From assembly GCF_013302895.1 (NCBI RefSeq), contig NZ_VJOK01000001.1:350769-414768 (forward strand): a stretch of DNA of 64,000 bases, read 5' to 3'. How positions within the stretch are numbered: position 1 is the first letter of the stretch; the number at the start of each line of letters is the position of its first letter. Both the position numbers and the translations under genes were made by a program. This document shows positions 38,979 to 48,719 of this stretch, one piece after another. A model generated the notes under the pieces. That model saw only the letters and a list, made by a program, of their open reading frames with translations. It made no database searches and was not told where the DNA came from. The DNA comes from Streptomyces albus subsp. chlorinus (GTDB lineage: Bacteria; Actinomycetota; Actinomycetes; Streptomycetales; Streptomycetaceae).

Positions 38979-40613
38979 GTGAGCGGAACCAGCCCGGCGG
39001 GGGAAGTGCCGTGCGGGGACGAGGAGGAGGGCGGCGGGCATCCGCGCCGGTGGGCGATCCTGGTGGCGGTGTGTGCCGCGCTGCTGGTGATCGTGGTGGA
39101 CAACACGGTCCTCAACGTGGCGCTGCCCTCGGTCTCCGCGTCGTTCGGTGCGTCCACGGCGTGGCAGCAGGCGGTGCTGGACGCGTACACCGTCGTCTTC
39201 TCCGGGCTGCTGATCACCGCGGGGGCGGTGTCGGACCGGTGGGGGCGGCGGCGTGCCATGGTCACGGGCCTGGTGGTGCTGGGTCTGTCGTCGGCCGCGG
39301 CGGCGCTCGCGTGGTCGGTGTGGTGGCTCGTGGTGACGCGCGCGCTGATGGGCGCGGGGGCCGCGCTGGTGATGCCCGCCACTCTGGCCCTGCTGGTACA
39401 GGTGTTTCCCGCTTCCGAGCGTCCCCGGGCGTTCGCCGTGTGGGGTGTGGTCGCCTCCGTCGCGATGGCGCTGGGACCGGTGCTGGGCGGGGCGGTGGTG
39501 CAGCTGTGGGGGTGGCCGGGCGCGTTCCTGATCAACGTTCCGGTGGTGTGCGGGGCCGTGGCGGCGATCGTGCGCCTGGTGCCCGAGTCCCGCGACCGCC
39601 AGGGGCGTGTGGTCGATCCGTACAGCGCCGTCCTCATCACCGTGGGCATGACCGCGCTGACCTCGGCGGTGATCATGGCCGGAGAGGGCGGGGCGGGCCG
39701 CCCGCTGCCGCTGGCGTGCGGGATCCTCGCGCTGGTGACGGTGGCCGTCTTCCTGCGACGCCAGCGCCGGGCGGCCTCGCCCATGGTCGACCTCACGCTG
39801 TACCGGGACCGCCAGTTCGCGGGCGGGAGCCTGGCCGTGACGGTCATCTCGCTGGGCACCGGCAGCACGCTGTTCATCCTCGCCCAGTATCTGCAACTGG
39901 TACGCGGGATGGGGCCGCTGGAGGCCGGGCTGGCCTCCTTCCCGATGGCGGCGGGCATCGTGCTCGGCTCGTACGCCGGCGGCCGGGCACCGGGCCGTAT
40001 CGGTCACCGCCGCTCGGTCGTCCTCGGCTTCACGGGCACGGCCGTGGGCTTCCTCGTCCTGGCCGCGCTGGCCCTGTACCCCGGTTACGGCCTGGTCGCG
40101 GTCGGTCTGTTCCTGGTGGGCGCGGGGAACGGGTTCGCCGGTCCGGCCGTCACCAGCACCGTGCTGGGAGCCGTCTCCAAGGACCGGGCGGGCATGGGCT
40201 CCGCGCTCAACGACACCCACCAGCAGTTCGGCGTCGCGTTCGGTGTGGCCGCCCTCGGCGGACTCCTGGCCGCCGTCTACCGCACCGAGCTGCCCTCCGC
40301 CGTCCCCGGGTCCGCGCGCGGCGCGCTCGCCGCGACCCTCGACCACAGCGCGGCGCAGGGCGGCGTGGCAGGGCAGGAGCTGGCGGAAGCCGCGCGGACC
40401 GCCTTCACACAGGCGCAGACGGCCACCATGCTCGCCGCCGGAGCCTGCGTGACCGCCGGAGTGGTGGTCGCCGCCGCGGTGCTGCGGCGCGACTCCCCCG
40501 GCACAGCGGAAGCCGGTGCGGGCCCGTCCCGGCGAGGCCGGCTCGCCTGCCGACGGCAGCACGGAGGCCCCACGCACGAACAGCGACAGGACCGGCTCGA
40601 CGCCGAGGGATGA
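38979..40613 (+). CDS. DHA2-family (14-helix) drug:H+ antiporter
   Basis: The 544-residue exporter starts at GTG with GGCGGAG upstream. Motifs are [18 protein letters not shown] in helix 1, [12 protein letters not shown] (motif A), [20 protein letters not shown] and [20 protein letters not shown] (motif C, antiporter signature). Fourteen membrane segments are visible. It probably exports drugs or a secondary metabolite. The last 40 or so codons lose normal bias, while the frame starting at 40516 gains it, so the true C terminus may lie in that frame. Confidence 0.87.
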
Positions 40614-41919: not shown

Positions 41920-42963
41920 TCAGTCCCAGAAGGTGAAGACCGGGTAGCCGCCTTTGCGGAGTCTCCAGTGCTTTCCCGCTCGCAGATGGGTGGTGACCGC
42001 GCGTTGCACGTTGGTGTGCGCGGGGAGGGTGAGGGCCGTTTCGAGGTCGTCGACGAGCCGGCCGTAGGCGTAGCAGAGGGCTTCCCGGTCCGCCTCGGTG
42101 AGGCCGTGCGCGTCCGGTTCCTGGGAGACGCCGGCGGGCTCCGTGCCCAGCCACGATCCCAGGTGGCCGGCGAACCGCACGAGGTCGTGGTCTTCCGGCA
42201 GGTAGTCGCGCAGGGCCGGGTCGTTGACCCAGCTGATGACCTCCACTCCGGCGGCGTCGAAGCCCCATCTGACGTCCCGCGCGAAGTCGGGGACGTGGCG
42301 GTGGAAGAACGCCACGAGTTCCTTCGCCCACCGCAGGTCGGGCACGGTCGTCAGCGGGCCCGCCTCACCGCGTACCCCGACGGCGATGCTGCGGGCGCCC
42401 TTGGGCACCGCGCAGTCCAGCTGCCCCATCCGGAAGGTGACCCCGCGGCAGACGTAGGTGAGGGGCACGAACGGGCCGCAGCCGCCCTCGCCGAAACTGC
42501 GGCGGTAACAGGCCAGCTGGTCCCCGAAGACGGCCAGGCTGTCCCGCGAGACGTCCTCGGGCAGGTCGATGCTCCGGTGGTAGGCGCGGGTGTGTTCCAT
42601 GGCGGCGAGGTACACGGCGGCGTGGAACCAGCGCGCCGTCCGGCCGTACTCGTGGAGCAGGGGTCCCAGCTGCAGTTCGTCGGCGCTGGTGCCCATGCCG
42701 GTGGTGAGGACGCGGACCGTGCGGTCCAGCAGCCAGCGCCAGGGCGAGCCGGGCGCGGTGAGTGCGGGCAGGGCGGCGGTGAGGTCGGCGCGGTCCTCGT
42801 CACGCACGCCCAACTGGTCCAGCAGGGCGACCAGTTCGTCGCCCTCGGGTATGGCCGGCGGGGGAAAGGGGCCCTCGATGAGTTCCAGGGCCTCCGTCCA
42901 GCTCCGGCAGTCCTCGCCGAGGCTGAGCGCGCCACGCAGATCATCGGCGTGCCATGTCGTCAT
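41920..42963 (-). CDS. Acyltransferase-domain (GNAT-like, DUF5596) protein
   Basis: The 347-residue product matches the actinobacterial two-domain acyltransferase-like family. The N-terminal helical domain includes RSWTEALELIEGPFPPP, and the C-terminal GNAT-like domain includes CGPFVPLTYVCRGVTFRMGQ. The rest (WAKELVAFFHRHVPDFARDV, then FAGHLGSWLGTE) is family-typical. GAGGAG lies eight bases before the ATG. It diverges from the RiPP operon across 333 bp. A role as an acyl-transferring tailoring or self-protection enzyme is possible but not shown. Confidence 0.65.
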   Translation of the reverse strand: MTTWHADDLRGALSLGEDCRSWTEALELIEGPFPPPAIPEGDELVALLDQLGVRDEDRADLTAALPALTAPGSPWRWLLDRTVRVLTTGMGTSADELQLGPLLHEYGRTARWFHAAVYLAAMEHTRAYHRSIDLPEDVSRDSLAVFGDQLACYRRSFGEGGCGPFVPLTYVCRGVTFRMGQLDCAVPKGARSIAVGVRGEAGPLTTVPDLRWAKELVAFFHRHVPDFARDVRWGFDAAGVEVISWVNDPALRDYLPEDHDLVRFAGHLGSWLGTEPAGVSQEPDAHGLTEADREALCYAYGRLVDDLETALTLPAHTNVQRAVTTHLRAGKHWRLRKGGYPVFTFWD

Positions 42964-43296
42964 GGTCGGTGCTCCTCGGTGCTCCTCGGTGAGACGGCTT
43001 CGGGCCCTGGGTCGATGGCCTGATACGCACCCTAGAGGACGGCCACGGAGAGGGTGGGGCGGGCTCCGGACGGCACCGGTGGGCGCCCGGACGCCAGGTT
43101 CCGCCCCTCCGGCCCTGGCCCCGAGGGGCTTCCCGCAGCTGCGCATCCAGGCACTGACGGGGTGTCAACTAGCTGCACACATAAGGAGATCACACTCCCT
43201 AGTGAACTCACGTTCGAGTCAGTACGCTTCAGCAAGTCGCCGTGGCCGATCGTCACGGCGGCACTCCCTCGTCCATTCACGTGGAAAGGAAACCCA
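42964..43296. promoter_or_regulatory. Divergent promoter region of the RiPP precursor
   Basis: The stretch 43155-43260 is clearly less GC-rich than its surroundings. It holds an imperfect 19-bp inverted repeat with outer arms GTGT and ACAC (43160-43178). An AAGGAG at 43181-43186 precedes a GTG that opens no plausible protein. The exact promoter cannot be fixed by eye. Confidence 0.4.
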
Positions 43297-43533
43297 GTGC
43301 CTGAACACGCAGGGCATCTTGTCCGAAAGGCAGCCCTCGCGGCTGCCGCGGTCGCGGCCGCTTCCGCCTTCACCGCCGGGACGGCCGGCAGCGCCGCAGC
43401 CGCCGAGCCGACCTCCGCCCAGCTCACCGAGGCGGCGTCGGCCGCCCAGCCGGACAGCGCTCTCGGGGCCGTCCTGAACCAGGTGACCGCCGAGGACGGG
43501 GAAGTCGGCTCCCTGGGGCTGTTCAACAGGTGA
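43297..43533 (+). CDS. Candidate RiPP precursor ending in Phe-Asn-Arg
   Basis: The 78-residue product starts at GTG with GGAAAGGA six bases upstream. Residues 9-37 look like an export signal (HLVRKAALAAAAVAAASAFT, then an Ala-rich cleavage region AGSAAAAEP). A short acidic/hydrophobic segment (PTSAQLTEAASAAQ, DSALGAVLNQVTAEDGE) leads to the C terminus GSLGLFNR. It lies directly before an FxsB-family radical SAM gene, the hallmark of a modified-peptide operon. FxsB substrates usually end FxSxx; here the aromatic residue is third from the end. The expected product is a three-residue cyclophane at F-N-R, which is inference. Confidence 0.7.
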   Translation: MPEHAGHLVRKAALAAAAVAAASAFTAGTAGSAAAAEPTSAQLTEAASAAQPDSALGAVLNQVTAEDGEVGSLGLFNR

Positions 43534-43540
43534 CGAGCCC

Positions 43541-43577
43541 GGGCCGTTCCACGGACGGCTCGTCCGTGGAACGGCCC
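43541..43577 (+). terminator. Attenuator hairpin between precursor and maturase
   Basis: GGGCCGTTCCACGGA (43541-43555) and TCCGTGGAACGGCCC (43563-43577) form a perfect 15-bp stem with a seven-base loop, eight bases after the precursor stop. No T-run follows, so partial termination or mRNA stabilisation is expected, giving more precursor than enzyme. Confidence 0.75.
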
Positions 43578-43618
43578 ACCGGGACGACATACTTGCCGAG
43601 ATCCGGAGGAATCGTTTC

Positions 43619-44878
43619 GTGACCGAGCTGCCGATCGTGCAGGTGAACGAGCGGACTGCCGAGTGGCCCACCCAGGAGGTCACCGATCAGGCGCTCGCGG
43701 ATCCGGCCTGGCGCCCGCTGCCCTTCGTGGAGTTCGCCCTCAAGTTCCACGGCCGGTGCAACCTGGCCTGCGACTACTGCTACATGTACGAGATGGCCGA
43801 CCAGAGCTGGCGTGACAAGCCGATGGCCATGTCCCGGCAGGTGATCGACCAGTTCGCCTTCCGGCTCGGAGAACATCTGCGGGCCCACGCGGGCGAGGTC
43901 CGCGGAGCGTCGGTGCGGATGCACGGCGGCGAGGCGCTGCTCGCCGGTGCGGACCGGTTCGCCTACGCGGCCCGGGCACTGCGTGCGGCCGCGCCGCCCG
44001 AGGCCGAGCTGCGGCTCGTCACCACGACCAACGGCATACTCCTCGACGACGAGGAGCTGCTGGAGGTGCTCCGCGAGCACCGCATCGGCGTCACGGTCAG
44101 CCTCGACGGGGACCAGGAGGGACAGGACCGGCACCGCCGGTACGCCAACGGCCGGGGCAGCTACGACCGGGTGATGCGCGGCATCGAAGCGCTGAACCGG
44201 CCCGCCTACCGCGAGCTGTTCGACATCGTGCTGTGCACCATCGATCTGGAGAACGACCCGCTGGCCACCTACCGGGCGCTGGCCGATACGGGGGCGCCCG
44301 CCGTGGACTTCCTCCTGCCGCTCGGCAACTGGACGTCACCGCCGCCGGGATGGACCGGCCGGGACGGAGGCACCGCCTACGCCGACTGGCTCATCCCCGT
44401 CTTCGACCACTGGTACGGCACAGTCCCGGTCCCGACCGGTGTCCGGCTCTTCGAGAGCGTCATGGCGATGACGCTCGGCGGGCACAGCCGGGTCGAGGCG
44501 GTGGGGCTCGCCCCGTTCCAGCTGCTCGTCATCGAGAGCGACGGCACCATCGAACTCGGCGACGCGCTCAAGTCCGCCTACGCGGGCGCTCCGTTCACCG
44601 GCCTGAACGTCTTCCGCAACTCACTGGACGAGGCCCGCCTCCTCCCGGGCGTGGTCGCCCGGCAGCGCGGCGTGGCCGCCCTGTCGCCGGCCTGTACCGG
44701 CTGCTCGGTCCGGGACATCTGCGGGGCCGGCGAGTACAGCACCCGCTACCGCGCCGGCACGGGCTTCCTCAATCCCTCCGTCTACTGCGCCGACCTGACC
44801 AAGCTGATCTGCCACATCCGCGACCGGGTGCTCACCGACGTGGCACGGCTGAGGGAGCACGGCGCGACGGCCGGCTGA
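43619..44878 (+). CDS. FxsB-family radical SAM/SPASM peptide maturase
   Basis: The 419-residue product starts at GTG behind GGAGGA. The radical SAM cluster motif is CNLACDYC (Cys47, 51, 54). FxsB-type context includes PFVEFALKFHGRC, MYEMADQSWRDKPM, VRMHGGEALLAGADRF and FLLPLGNWTSPPP. A SPASM region near the C terminus (CTGCSVRDICGAGEYSTRY, then PSVYCADLTKLICHI) holds auxiliary iron-sulfur clusters. Related FxsB enzymes join an aromatic ring carbon to a nearby residue's beta-carbon, making strained cyclophanes. It is cytoplasmic, acting on the 43297 precursor, and lacks the long C-terminal extension found in some FxsB proteins. Confidence 0.88.
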   Translation: MTELPIVQVNERTAEWPTQEVTDQALADPAWRPLPFVEFALKFHGRCNLACDYCYMYEMADQSWRDKPMAMSRQVIDQFAFRLGEHLRAHAGEVRGASVRMHGGEALLAGADRFAYAARALRAAAPPEAELRLVTTTNGILLDDEELLEVLREHRIGVTVSLDGDQEGQDRHRRYANGRGSYDRVMRGIEALNRPAYRELFDIVLCTIDLENDPLATYRALADTGAPAVDFLLPLGNWTSPPPGWTGRDGGTAYADWLIPVFDHWYGTVPVPTGVRLFESVMAMTLGGHSRVEAVGLAPFQLLVIESDGTIELGDALKSAYAGAPFTGLNVFRNSLDEARLLPGVVARQRGVAALSPACTGCSVRDICGAGEYSTRYRAGTGFLNPSVYCADLTKLICHIRDRVLTDVARLREHGATAG

Positions 44879-45170: not shown

Positions 45171-45755
45171 ATGCGTGACGCGCGGCACGACCGTGAGGCC
45201 GCCGCCGGGCTGCCGCCCGGCGATGTCATCGGCGTACTGCTGGCCCAGCACTCCCGGATCCGGGAACTGTTCGACGCGGTACGCGACGGCCCCGCCGACC
45301 GGCGCGAGGAGAGGTTCCTGGAGCTGCGTGTCCTGCTGGCGGTGCATGAGACCGCGGAGGAGATGATCGTCCGCCCCGTGGTCAGGAAGATCGGCGGTGA
45401 GCGGCAGGCCGCCGCCCGCGACAAGGAGGAGAAGGAGGCCGCCAGGGCCCTGGCCGGCCTGGAGAAGCTCGACTTCGGCAGCGCACGCTTCACCGCCGCC
45501 TTCACCGACTTCGAGCGGGCGGTCCACGAGCACGCCGACCTGGAGGAGCGCGAGGAGTTCCCCTCCCTGCTCCGTCTGTGCACCCCGGAGGAGCTGGTCA
45601 GGATGGGGGCACGCCTCCTCGCCGTGGAGAAGGCCGCCCCCACCCGCCCGCACCCCTCCACCACCGGTTCGGCGGCCGCGCAGTGGGCCCTGGGTCCCTT
45701 CGCCGCGCTCCTCGACCGCGTCCGCGACGCGATCGGTTCCGCCTCCCGCCACTAA
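45171..45755 (+). CDS. Hemerythrin-domain protein
   Basis: The 194-residue product has a four-helix HHE-type hemerythrin-like domain: GVLLAQHSRIRELFDAVRDG (first His helix), LLAVHETAEEMIVRPVV (HxxxE) and VHEHADLEEREEFPSLL. The Lys/Glu-rich middle separates the helix pairs. Such proteins bind a di-iron centre and handle oxygen, NO or peroxide. AAGGAG precedes the ATG at 45171. It is not overlapped by any neighbour and is probably monocistronic. Confidence 0.88.
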   Translation: MRDARHDREAAAGLPPGDVIGVLLAQHSRIRELFDAVRDGPADRREERFLELRVLLAVHETAEEMIVRPVVRKIGGERQAAARDKEEKEAARALAGLEKLDFGSARFTAAFTDFERAVHEHADLEEREEFPSLLRLCTPEELVRMGARLLAVEKAAPTRPHPSTTGSAAAQWALGPFAALLDRVRDAIGSASRH

Positions 45756-46283
45756 ACGCCGTCCCCTTCCGGCGGCAGGAGCGAGGGACCGCCCGGCAGC
45801 CCTCTCCGCGTCCGGGCGGCTGCCGCGGCGGCCTTGTGCGCGAGCGCCGCACGGCGGCGGTGTGTCCGGCGGGAAGGGAACGAGGGCACGGTGGTGCAGG
45901 TGAGTCGTCGCCGTGGGCGGCGAGGGCATGCCGGAGCAGGGCGGCGGCGAGCGCACGCCGAGCAGGGTGGCGGCGAGGGCACGGCGCACCCCTCGCGTCT
46001 CATGGTGCTCCTCTCCGAGCGCCCGCGCCCAGCCGCCCGCGGCCTGCTCGAACAGTTGGACGGCCTCCTCCCGCCGCTCCCGCTCCTCCCCCGGCAGGCA
46101 GGCGGCGGCGAGGCCGTTGCGGACCGACAGGTCAGGAATCGAGAAGCAGACCGCGCCGGGGCCCGGCTAGCGTGACGCCATGGACCTCACCCCGCACACC
46201 AGGTGGAAGGCCTGCGAGGCACCGGGGTCCTGGCAGGGGAGGACACTCCGCGGCCGCACCGGCCCACGACAGAGGGAGACACG
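45756..46283 (-). pseudogene. Stretch with a tetratricopeptide-repeat fragment
   Basis: On the minus strand from about 46140 to 45945 the frame reads LSVRNGLAAACLPGEERERR, then EEAVQLFEQAAGGWARALGE and RRALAATLLG. This is the TPR unit seen at the C terminus of Streptomyces NB-ARC/TPR regulators. It has no start, no upstream repeats and no proper end, so it is a fragment. Nothing else in the stretch is supported. Confidence 0.45.
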
Positions 46284-48719
46284 ATGAGCACGGCTGCCCA
46301 GCGGACGGGCGCGCACACGCCGGACCCCGCCGACAGCCACGGTCTGATCCGCGTGCACGGCGCACGCGAGAACAACCTCAAGGACATCAGCGTCGAGATC
46401 CCGAAGCGCCGCCTGACGGTGTTCACCGGCGTCTCCGGCTCGGGCAAGAGCTCCCTGGTGTTCGACACGATCGCCGCCGAGTCGCAGCGGATGAGCAATG
46501 AGACCTACAGCGCCTTCGTGCAGGGTTTCATGCCGACGCCGTCCCGGCCCGAGGCCGATGTGCTCGAAGGGCTGACGACCGCGATCATCGTCGACCAGCA
46601 GCGGATGGGCGCCGACCCCCGCTCCACGGTCGGTACCGTCACCGACGCCAACGCGATGCTGCGCATCCTCTTCAGCCGGCTGGGGCAGCCGCACATCGGC
46701 CCGCCCAGCGCGTACTCCTTCAACACCGCCTCGGTGCGGGCGAGCGGTGCGATCACCGTCGAGCGCGGCAACAGGAAGGCGGTCAAGGCGACCTACGCGC
46801 GCACCGGCGGCATGTGCACGAGATGCGAGGGCCGTGGCAGCGTCTCCGACATCGACCTCAGCCAGCTCTACGACGAGAACAAGTCGCTGGCCGAGGGCGC
46901 GTTCACCATTCCGGGCTGGAAGTCCGACAGCTTCTTCACCGTCCGGGTCTACGCCGAGTCGGGGTTCCTCGACCCGCTCAAGCCGATCCGCGAGTTCACC
47001 GAGAAGGAGATGCGCGACTTCCTGTACCGGGAACCGACCAAGGTGAAGGTCGAGGGGGTGAACCTCACCTACGAGGGGCTGATCCCCAAGATCCACAAGT
47101 CGTTCCTGTCCAAGGACAAGGAGGCACTGCAGCCGCACATCCGGGCGTTCGTGGAGCGGGCGGTCACTTTCACCACCTGTCCCGAGTGCGAGGGCACCCG
47201 GCTCAGCGAGGCGGCCCGGTCGTCGAAGATCGACGGGGTCAGCATCGCCGACGCCTGCGCGAGGGAGATCAGGGACCTGGCCGAGTGGGTCCGCGGGCTC
47301 CAGGAATCCTCGCGGGGCTCGTCGAGCAAGGAGTACGCCAGGGTGGCACCGCTGCTCACCGCGCTGCGGCAGACCTTCGACTCGTTCGAGGAGATCGGGC
47401 TGGGATACCTCTCGCTCGACCGGCCCTCGGGGACGCTGTCGGGCGGCGAGGCGCAGCGCGTCAAGATGGTCCGCCACCTCGGCTCCTCCCTCACCGACAC
47501 CACCTACGTCTTCGACGAGCCCACCACGGGCCTGCACCCCCACGACATCCAGCGGATGAACAACCTGCTGCTGCGGCTGCGGGACAAGGGCAACACGGTG
47601 CTCGTCGTGGAGCACGAGCCGGAGACCATCGCGATCGCCGACCACGTCGTCGACCTCGGCCCCGGGGCGGGTGCGGCGGGCGGCACCGTCTGCTTCGAGG
47701 GCAGCGTCGAGAAGCTGCGGTCCAGCGGTACCGTCACCGGCCGTCATCTCGACGACCGGACCGCCCTCAAGGAGACGGTACGCAGGCCCACCGGCGCGCT
47801 GGAGATCCGCGGCGCGTCGGCGCACAACCTGCGGGACGTGGACGTGGACATCCCGCTCGGCGTGCTCGTCGTCGTCACCGGGGTCGCGGGCTCCGGCAAG
47901 AGTTCGCTCGTGCACGGGTCGGTGCCGAAGCAGGCGGAGGCGGCCGGTGCGGGCGTGGTGGCGGTCGACCAGAGCCCCATCCGCGGCTCACGGCGCAGCA
48001 ACCCGGCCACCTACACCGGTCTGCTCGACCCGATCCGCAAGGCGTTCGCCAAGGCCAACGGCGTCAAGCCGGGGCTCTTCAGCCCCAACTCGGAGGGTGC
48101 CTGCCCCACCTGCGGCGGCGCCGGCGTCCTCTACACCGATCTGGCGATGATGGCCGGTACCGCCACCCTCTGCGAGGACTGCGAGGGGAAGCGGTTCCAG
48201 GCGTCGGTGCTGGAACACCGCCTCGACGGCCGGGACATCAGCGAGGTGCTCGCCATGCCGGTGACGGAGGCCCTGGAGTTCTTCGGCGCGGGCGAGGCCC
48301 GCTCGCCCGCCGCGCACCGCGTCCTGGGGAGGCTCGCCGACGTCGGGCTCGGCTACCTCACCCTCGGCCAGCCGCTCACCACGCTGTCCGGCGGCGAGCG
48401 GCAGCGGCTCAAGCTGGCCGGGCACATGGGGGAGAAGGGCGGCGTCTACCTCCTCGACGAGCCGACCACCGGCCTCCACCTCGCCGACGTCCAGCAGTTG
48501 CTGGGTCTGCTGGACCGGCTCGTCGACTCCGGCACGTCGGTCATCGTGGTCGAGCACCACCAGGCCGTCATGGCGCACGCGGACTGGATCATCGACCTGG
48601 GACCCGGCGCCGGCCACGACGGCGGCCGCGTGGTCTTCGAGGGCACCCCCGCCGACCTCGTCGCCGCCCCCTCGACCCTCACCGGTGAACACCTCGCGGC
48701 CTACGTCGGCGCCCGCTGA
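46284..48719 (+). CDS. UvrA-like double ATPase (DrrC/UvrA2 type)
   Basis: The 811-residue product is shorter than housekeeping UvrA (about 950). It has two ABC halves: Walker [10 protein letters not shown] (about 49-57) and GVAGSGKSS, signature motifs [11 protein letters not shown] and [11 protein letters not shown], and DEPTTGL twice. Zinc-finger-like cysteines appear in MCTRCEGRG and CPTCGGAG, then CEDCEG. The insert that contacts UvrB is reduced. Daunorubicin producers carry such a protein, DrrC, which protects DNA from intercalating drugs. A self-resistance or DNA-damage role is likely. AGAGGGAG precedes the ATG. Confidence 0.87.

What the first reader, a model, noticed from the sequence alone, without database searches (positions are those of the whole stretch)
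43297..44878. FxsB-family maturase paired with a signal-like precursor ending in Phe-Asn-Arg
Seen: a 78-residue ORF with a Sec-like N terminus and C terminus GLFNR, then an FxsB-type radical SAM/SPASM gene 85 bp downstream. Known: FxsB enzymes act on FxSxx-COOH peptides to form three-residue cyclophanes. Inferred: this pair uses a different core, F-N-R, at the extreme C terminus, and a leader that doubles as an export signal, so no dedicated transporter would be needed. That combination looks like a new cyclophane peptide subclass.
Basis: partly seen in the sequence, partly recalled or inferred. Interest (0 to 1): 0.85.

Follow-up and report, generated by a model that had tools for sequence, protein, structure and literature searches.

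The report
Exported aromatic-to-arginine cyclophane peptide cassette
This two-gene cassette encodes a 78-residue peptide with a signal-like front end and an FxsB-family radical enzyme that is predicted to stitch the ring of a near-terminal aromatic residue to a basic residue two places on; 19 of 20 sequences of this peptide family end in aromatic-any-basic, so it is likely a distinct variant of the known cyclophane peptides, and one that would leave the cell by the general export route.

Summary
In detail: a 78-residue ORF (43297-43533) ending GLFNR lies 85 bp before an FxsB-family maturase (TIGR04269, 418.7 bits, cut-off 370). Of 20 distinct precursor sequences, 19 end in aromatic-X-[Arg/Lys] plus at most one residue (FNR, HNK, HAR, HHR, HSR-L, YQR-W, YER-W, YLK), 21-22 residues after a conserved SAL segment; 3.4% of small ORFs in the same loci end so. 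The exception keeps an FQS core. Their maturases form one clade (100/99) inside FxsB, with five positions nearly invariant in other FxsB enzymes switched in 7 of 7. A HExxH gene follows 61 of 100 FxsB maturases but 0 of these 7. The N-terminus looks like a Sec signal, unlike six canonical FxsA peptides. The fold model matches ChlB, a solved cyclophane synthase. The ring-to-C-beta(Arg/Lys) bond and Sec export are inferred, not shown. Aromatic-to-Arg cyclophanes are reported for YhhB and XncB, so this is a new variant of a known kind.

The parts
43283..43289 (+). ribosome-binding-like GGAAAGG before the precursor
   Evidence: read from sequence, 7 bases before the GTG start
43297..43533 (+). precursor peptide gene, 78 aa, GTG start, C terminus GLFNR
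   Evidence: homologues; 19 of 20 distinct sequences of the family, this one included, end in aromatic-X-[RK]
43330..43404 (+). charge-free Ala-rich stretch (residues 12-36) after Arg10-Lys11, ending in several A-x-A sites: predicted Sec signal peptide (no predictor run)
   Evidence: 25-residue run free of D/E/K/R/N/Q/H, best 15-residue hydropathy 1.82; six canonical FxsA peptides have runs of at most 9; three of four partial profile hits opened in the same genome are signal-like N-termini
43453..43485 (+). predicted maturase-recognition segment DSALGAVLNQV (residues 53-63)
   Evidence: S54, A55, L56, L60 invariant in 14 aligned precursors; the FxSxx-COOH model covers this region in P0006 (42.4 bits) and, below cut-off, in P0002 (15.1 bits)
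43522..43530 (+). predicted cyclophane core Phe76-Asn77-Arg78
   Evidence: motif conserved; Arg codon changed synonymously in L002
43541..43577 (+). 17-bp perfect inverted repeat with 3-base loop between the two genes; possible attenuator or mRNA 3'-end stabiliser
   Evidence: spacer 43531-43618 folds at -51.6 kcal/mol, z -5.73, 0 of 200 shuffles as good; the spacers of L003, L004, L005, L087, L088 and L089 also fold better than the shuffle mean
43619..44878 (+). FxsB-family radical SAM/SPASM maturase, 419 aa
   Evidence: TIGR04269 418.7 bits, cut-off 370; fold model pLDDT 88.6 matches ChlB 9gm3, TM 0.84/0.94

Best explanation
The locus is a two-gene cassette in which an FxsB-family radical SAM/SPASM enzyme is predicted to bind the SALxxxL segment of the small precursor and likely join the ring of Phe76 to the beta carbon of Arg78 (loss of 2 H), making a three-residue cyclophane at the very C terminus, after which the peptide would leave through Sec by its own N-terminal signal. 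Shown by sequence: the recurring pair; the conserved aromatic-X-[RK] end; its fixed distance from the SAL segment; one maturase clade with five switched positions; no HExxH gene after any of its 7 members. Inferred: the bond and its atoms, recognition by SAL, the order (modification before export), signal peptidase cleavage near Ala36 leaving a roughly 42-residue peptide whose ring cap would resist carboxypeptidases, and any bioactivity. The spacer hairpin would raise precursor over enzyme message. The ancestor was likely an ordinary FxSxx system: L005 still has a signal-like N-terminus, an FxsA leader, an FQS core and a HExxH neighbour, and the FxS core and that neighbour are gone in the aromatic-X-[RK] clade.
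For: Maturase over the FxsB cut-off. Model matches ChlB-precursor complexes 9gm3/9gmc, 34% identity, rmsd about 2.1 A; a title in PMC12636437's reference list calls ChlB a multiple cyclophane synthase. 19 of 20 distinct precursor sequences end in [FHY]x[RK]x?, 21-22 residues after SAL, against 22 of 642 ORFs of 40-160 aa in nine loci, precursors themselves not removed. Eight different ends keep the aromatic and basic positions while the middle residue is N, A, H, S, Q, E or L. Window against L002: the last 13 codons have 5 amino-acid changes, none in FNR, and the Arg codon differs. Clade of 7 maturases 100/99, next L005 at 98/94. Five positions switched in 7 of 7. A relative of the L005/L006 HExxH gene follows 61 of 100 maturases with enough downstream sequence, 0 of 7 in the clade. 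Nine neighbourhoods share no other gene except synteny among L087-L089 and that HExxH gene. Signal-like features. Precedent for Tyr/His-to-Cbeta(Arg), Trp-to-Cbeta(Arg) and, by MscB, Phe C4-to-Cbeta(Ser) (PMC11002830 passages).
Against: No chemistry, expression or mass data. No Phe-to-Arg or aromatic-to-Lys cyclophane was seen in the passages read. A basic end could serve binding, proteolysis or membrane contact instead. No signal-peptide predictor was available; Ala-rich, moderately hydrophobic N-termini could be helices or anchors, and profile hits to other N-termini may reflect composition. The 7 maturases are one clade, so each switch may be one ancestral event, and the five were picked from 18 positions that passed a filter. 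Precursors are few; those with names come from Streptomyces, Actinacidiphila, Nonomuraea and Dactylosporangium. L002, the closest locus, has its FNR end in another frame than its start, so that copy is a sequencing error or inactive. L006, a near relative, has no recognisable precursor in 13 kb. An MFS transporter gene is near the window pair.
Confidence: 0.72

Rival explanations
1. An ordinary FxsB/FxSxx triceptide system whose core has merely drifted; the enzyme is a usual FxsB enzyme and the signal-like N-terminus is incidental.
For: FxsB family call; L005 shows an intermediate with an FQS core; His, Tyr and Trp three-residue cyclophanes to Arg are reported for other enzymes.
Against: The FxSxx-COOH model does not detect the window precursor; the HExxH neighbour is absent in 7 of 7; five near-invariant maturase positions changed in the clade; 19 of 20 have [RK] at the third position.
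Confidence: 0.15
2. The maturase does something other than a ring-to-C-beta bond, such as epimerisation, an ether link, or a link to another atom of Arg78.
For: Radical SAM/SPASM enzymes are diverse; the switched positions include the residue after GGE and the Q of QTNG and could alter reaction type.
Against: Closest solved structure is a cyclophane synthase; the aromatic-X-X3 spacing equals that of known three-residue cyclophanes.
Confidence: 0.1
3. The N-terminus is not an export signal but a membrane anchor or part of a longer leader, so the product stays cell-bound or is processed inside, or leaves by another transporter such as the nearby MFS protein.
For: Ala-rich, moderate hydropathy (1.8-2.5 in full-length members apart from P0011 at 1.1); no predictor run; MFS_1 gene about 2.7 kb upstream.
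Against: Charge-free run of 19-30 residues and A-x-A sites in 17 of the 19 sequences scored, the other two (P0011, P0016) being shortened there; partial profile hits to signal-like N-termini in the same genome; no transporter shared between unrelated neighbourhoods.
Confidence: 0.25
4. The small ORF is a plain secreted protein that happens to lie upstream of the maturase, whose true substrate is elsewhere.
For: 83 of 105 maturase places showed no recognisable precursor within 1 kb by my scan, so substrates may lie elsewhere in many FxsB systems.
Against: The pair recurs in 7 loci, in five different surroundings; one maturase and one full-length precursor in the genome; conserved C-terminal motif.
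Confidence: 0.04

Closest known systems
FxsB / FxSxx-COOH (FxsA) triceptide systems of actinobacteria (TIGR04269 / TIGR04268)
   Same: Maturase family over cut-off; a leader segment resembling FxsA's, placed just over 20 residues before the reactive aromatic residue
   Different: Core aromatic-X-[RK] at or one residue from the C terminus instead of FxSxx; signal-like N-terminus; no HExxH gene after the maturase; five switched maturase positions
MscB (Phe C4 to Ser C-beta), HaaB/ScaB (His C2 to Ala C-beta), YhhB (Tyr C3 and His C2 to Arg C-beta), XncB (Trp to Arg/Asn) three-residue cyclophane forming enzymes (PMC11002830, passages)
   Same: Ring of residue i to C-beta of residue i+2; YhhB and XncB use Arg at i+2; His and Tyr rings used
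   Different: YhhB model scores 319.8 against cut-off 445; Phe-to-Arg and aromatic-to-Lys pairs not seen in the passages read; the motif here is single and C-terminal
ChlB (9gm3, 9gmc)
   Same: Fold, 34% identity; solved with its precursor's leader; keeps P106, Q136 and P226 equivalents of ordinary FxsB (alignment)
   Different: Multiple cyclophanes; HExxH hydroxylase partner (ChlBH/ChlH); D at the H235 and Q313 equivalents
Bufferins and other MNIO RiPPs with Sec signal peptides (PMC12452194, passages)
   Same: Signal peptide on a RiPP precursor, general Sec export
   Different: Different enzyme class, mostly Cys-containing cores, copper binding in bufferins, partner proteins

Membership tests
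FxsB radical SAM/SPASM maturase | TIGR04269 score over curated cut-off | tested here: met
   418.7 bits, cut-off 370
FxsB radical SAM/SPASM maturase | CxxxCxxC and C-terminal SPASM cysteines | tested here: met
   C47, C51, C54, C359, C362, C368 invariant and C390 nearly so in 36 sequences
FxsB radical SAM/SPASM maturase | residues nearly invariant in the other sequences sampled (P106, Q136, P226, H235, Q313); my own criterion, not part of the curated model | tested here: not met
   all five replaced in 7 of 7 clade members: a divergent subfamily within the curated family
FxSxx-COOH cyclophane RiPP precursor (TIGR04268) | model score over 28 bits | tested here: not met
   window 0 hits; P0002 15.1 bits; of 14 scanned only P0006 passes, 42.4
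FxSxx-COOH cyclophane RiPP precursor (TIGR04268) | FxS core near the C terminus | tested here: not met
   GLFNR
Triceptide (three-residue cyclophane RiPP) | aromatic-X-X3 motif next to a maturase of a cyclophane-forming family | tested here: met
Triceptide (three-residue cyclophane RiPP) | ring carbon to C-beta bond in the product | not testable with these tools
   needs expression, MS/MS and NMR
YhhB cyclophane maturase (NF041707) | model score over 445 bits | tested here: not met
   319.8 bits
Sec-exported RiPP | cleavable N-terminal Sec signal | tested here: inconclusive
   features only; no predictor or experiment

The most novel reading that the evidence does not exclude
A self-exporting triceptide subclass: FxsB enzymes re-tooled at five otherwise near-invariant positions weld Phe, His or Tyr to the beta carbon of a terminal Arg or Lys, capping the C terminus of a Sec-secreted peptide with a strained ring, in a minimal two-gene cassette that needs no transporter, protease or hydroxylase gene of its own.
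Probability: 0.5. Interest if true: 0.72.

Novelty: new variant of a known kind. Interest (0 to 1): 0.57.

Why it matters
If true it gives a very small tractable system (one enzyme, one peptide) for aromatic-to-Arg/Lys cyclophanes, a sequence-defined specificity switch within FxsB that can be tested at five residues, and a radical SAM RiPP precursor whose N-terminus serves export while a separate inner segment serves enzyme recognition, which raises the question how modification beats export. C-terminal ring caps are also of practical interest for making peptides protease-resistant.

Tried and rejected
1) The GNAT-like gene (41920-43146, minus strand; NAT_N 83.7 bits) as part of the cluster: rejected, not shared with the eight other neighbourhoods; at E <= 1e-40 found only in the window's own genome among 41 searched. 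2) The hemerythrin-like gene 45171-45755: not shared; 6 of 41 genomes, own included, carry a homologue at 1e-30. I ran no empty-site comparison. 3) Precursor profile and P0006 against PDB to find the ChlA leader: only chance hits, best E 0.074 and 0.22. 4) Distances of the five switched residues to the active site were not measured, as model coordinates are not readable here; that D315 matches the catalytic Asp of anSME, with Q313 two residues before it, rests on the alignment plus recall. 5) Scans, own genome counted in where drawn: genus 1 of 392 at 1e-140, the own genome alone; family 6 of 394 at 1e-120; genus of G496 4 of 35; class 35 of 394 at 1e-115, the other matches 49-54% identical. 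6) Tail scan (105 maturase places, 1 kb each side, regular expressions, some loci with short flanks, L004 and L090 the same locus): rows in 22, of which I judge L011, L109 and the L086 row chance; 83 had none, L002 among them because of its frame, so the scan misses many. L086's FNSY repeats were read by eye. An earlier, stricter scan missed most known precursors because its pattern was too narrow. 7) HExxH: a bare HE..H scan gave 62 of 100 maturases and flagged L090; the L090 frame does not resemble the L005/L006 gene and is taken as chance. The same scan of the window (36-54 kb) gave two frames that I take as chance, on the strand opposite the UvrA-like gene and the MFS gene. 8) Pfam on nine ORFs around the pair: GH6, MFS_1, DUF642, ABC_tran, acyl-CoA dehydrogenase, CMD, two ABC permeases, solute-binding protein; no peptidase or radical SAM partner. 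9) Papers: 'fxsb' listed none on the subject, 'fxsxx' one. The listings show no title on an FxsB system with an aromatic-X-[RK] end, but I opened only six papers, and those only as passages. Sugiyama 2022, Ruel 2025, Morishita 2024 and Phan and Morinaka 2024 were seen only as references, and a 2022 ACS Chem Biol paper on actinobacterial triceptide maturases is recalled, not seen. Novelty against them is untested.

Full report
OBSERVATION. The 78-residue ORF (43297-43533) and the maturase (43619-44878) are present as described. The maturase scores 418.7 bits with the FxsB model TIGR04269 (cut-off 370); the next model is YhhB, 319.8 bits against a cut-off of 445. The window precursor reaches no NCBIfam or Pfam cut-off. 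The genome holds one FxsB maturase at E <= 0.001 and one full-length precursor match. A search for the FxSxx-COOH family in the genome found nothing, but rang in none of 14 control genomes either.

PRECURSOR FAMILY. Three searches of 5.8 billion proteins and the loci gave 20 distinct sequences: window, P0001-P0016, L003, L082, L083. Nineteen end in [FHY]-X-[RK] plus at most one residue: HNK in 5, FNR 4, YQR-W 4, HAR 2, and HHR, YLK, YER-W, HSR-L one each. The exception, P0006 (locus L005), ends PWFQSVSPQ. P0016 is a 42-residue fragment, P0011 lacks part of the N-terminus, and P0012 is a 148-residue frame whose true start is probably later. From the S of SAL to the aromatic residue it is 22 in 13 and 21 in 6. 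Background: 22 of 642 ORFs of 40-160 aa in nine loci end this way (3.4%, precursors not removed). Family members are not independent, so I give no p-value. Window against L002 (maturase 81% identical): in the last 13 codons 5 amino-acid changes, none in FNR, and a synonymous change in its Arg codon. In L087-L089 the GKYQRW codons do not differ while the rest of the gene differs at many. In L002 the FNR end lies in another frame than the start.

TWO-PART LEADER. In 14 aligned precursors S54, A55, L56 and L60 are invariant. The FxSxx-COOH model hits P0006 at residues 46-81 (42.4 bits, cut-off 28) and P0002, below cut-off, at 48-66 (15.1 bits), so the SAL segment is likely the FxsA recognition region. 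Upstream lies a charge-free stretch: 25 residues in the window and 19-30 in the other full-length members scored, 15 in P0011 and 13 in the fragment P0016, with A-x-A sites near its end; six canonical FxsA peptides reach at most 9 (L003 was not scored there). Profile hits elsewhere in the same genome are partial (13 at E <= 1); of the four I opened, L120, L121 and L123 show a signal-like N-terminus (L121 with a lipobox-like LTAC) and L124 does not; L122 and the rest were not opened. Shared composition may explain such hits. No signal-peptide predictor was run.

NEIGHBOURHOODS. All-against-all comparison of ORFs of 90 aa or more around nine maturases (window, L002, L003, L090, L005, L006, L087-L089) shares only the maturase (and reverse-frame overlaps of it), apart from the synteny of L087-L089, whose flanks I did not annotate, and a gene after the maturase in L005 and L006 that carries HEFQH/HEFHH (read by eye). 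Precursors, being shorter, were read separately. A relative of the L005/L006 gene follows 61 of 100 maturases with at least 1400 bases downstream, and 0 of the 7 with aromatic-X-[RK] precursors. FxSxx systems are described with a zincin-like peptidase gene and AP-ATPase conflict systems (PMC7159879, passages); a HExxH enzyme fused to radical SAM turned out to be an alpha-KG hydroxylase (PMC12636437, passages). Pfam on nine further ORFs around the window pair shows GH6, an MFS_1 transporter 2.7 kb upstream (38979-40613), DUF642, a UvrA-like ABC ATPase, acyl-CoA dehydrogenase and carboxymuconolactone decarboxylase domains, and sugar-type ABC genes, but no peptidase or radical SAM partner.

MATURASE EVOLUTION. 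A tree of 49 maturases puts the 7 with aromatic-X-[RK] precursors in one clade (100/99), next L005 (98/94), then L006 (100/99), then FxS-associated L091/L092 (86/90). Against 14 sequences of an FxS set (L005 and L006 included) and 83 others, 18 positions passed a filter for a switch; five are 7 of 7 in the clade and nearly constant elsewhere: P106A (P in 14 of 14 and 83 of 83), Q136T (Q in 14 and 82), P226A (P in 13 and 83), H235L (H in 13 and 80), Q313L (Q in 13 and 81). Of the five, L005 has only L313 and L006 only A226 and L235. P106 follows the GGE motif and Q136 opens QTNG. Being one clade, each may be a single event.

STRUCTURE. A model from 36 sequences has mean pLDDT 88.6, pTM 0.87. 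The best PDB matches are ChlB with its precursor, 9gm3 and 9gmc (TM 0.84/0.94, rmsd about 2.1 A, 34% identity), then anSME; sequence search agrees (9gm3, 1.5e-108). Cysteines for the radical SAM cluster and four C-terminal SPASM cysteines are kept.

SPACER HAIRPIN. Between the genes lies a perfect 17-bp inverted repeat (43541-43577). The spacer folds with z -5.73. Others: L003 -5.31, L088 -5.33, L087 -4.37, L089 -2.61, L004 -2.58, L005 -2.54; shuffles as good 2 of 200 for L004 and L089, 0 for the rest. For L088 only 100 bases from the precursor's stop were folded; L002 was not tested, and no unrelated spacers were folded as control. An attenuator that raises precursor over enzyme is the usual reading in RiPP operons (recalled).

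READING. The wider motif fits three-residue cyclophanes: PMC11002830 (passages) lists Phe C4-Cbeta(Ser) by MscB (IPR026335, which I recall as the FxsB entry), His C2-Cbeta(Ala) by HaaB, Tyr C3- and His C2-Cbeta(Arg) by YhhB, and Trp-Cbeta(Arg) by XncB. PMC9062424 (passages) discusses such a Tyr-Arg link as a possibility for a YNR/HNR-repeat peptide. PMC12452194 (passages) calls Sec signals rare in RiPPs and says their use in the natural host was shown only for bufferins. So the chemistry class and the export idea both have precedents; their combination in FxsB, with a C-terminal aromatic-X-[RK] core, was not found in my searches, whose library lacks most key papers.

Noticed in passing
43541-43577: Perfect 17-bp inverted repeat in the spacer; spacers of six related loci also fold better than shuffles, with different sequences.
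   Followed up: partly
L002:5715-5950: Closest relative's precursor has its start and its FNR end in different frames; intact precursors of near relatives exist (P0001).
   Followed up: partly
L005:5555-5830 and the gene after the maturase: Dactylosporangium fulvum precursor combines a signal-like N-terminus, an FxsA leader and an FQS core, with a HExxH gene after the maturase: looks like an evolutionary intermediate.
   Followed up: yes
L002-L109: 83 of 105 maturase places show no FxS or aromatic-X-[RK] peptide within 1 kb by my scan, while 61 of 100 are followed by a relative of the L005/L006 HExxH gene. Substrates of many are unclear.
   Followed up: partly
L006: Asanoa iriomotensis maturase next to the clade with two of the five switches, a HExxH neighbour and no precursor found in 13 kb.
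   Followed up: partly
41920-43146 (minus strand): N-acyltransferase-like protein (NAT_N/GNAT_C), not found at E <= 1e-40 in the 40 other genomes searched.
   Followed up: partly
46203-48719: ABC-ATPase ORF (ABC_tran 72.4 bits) that looks like a UvrA-type protein by eye.
   Followed up: no
L120 (own genome, C1:3288855-3288971 region): Another small frame with a signal-like N-terminus, ending YYFSWY; not near a maturase as far as checked.
   Followed up: no
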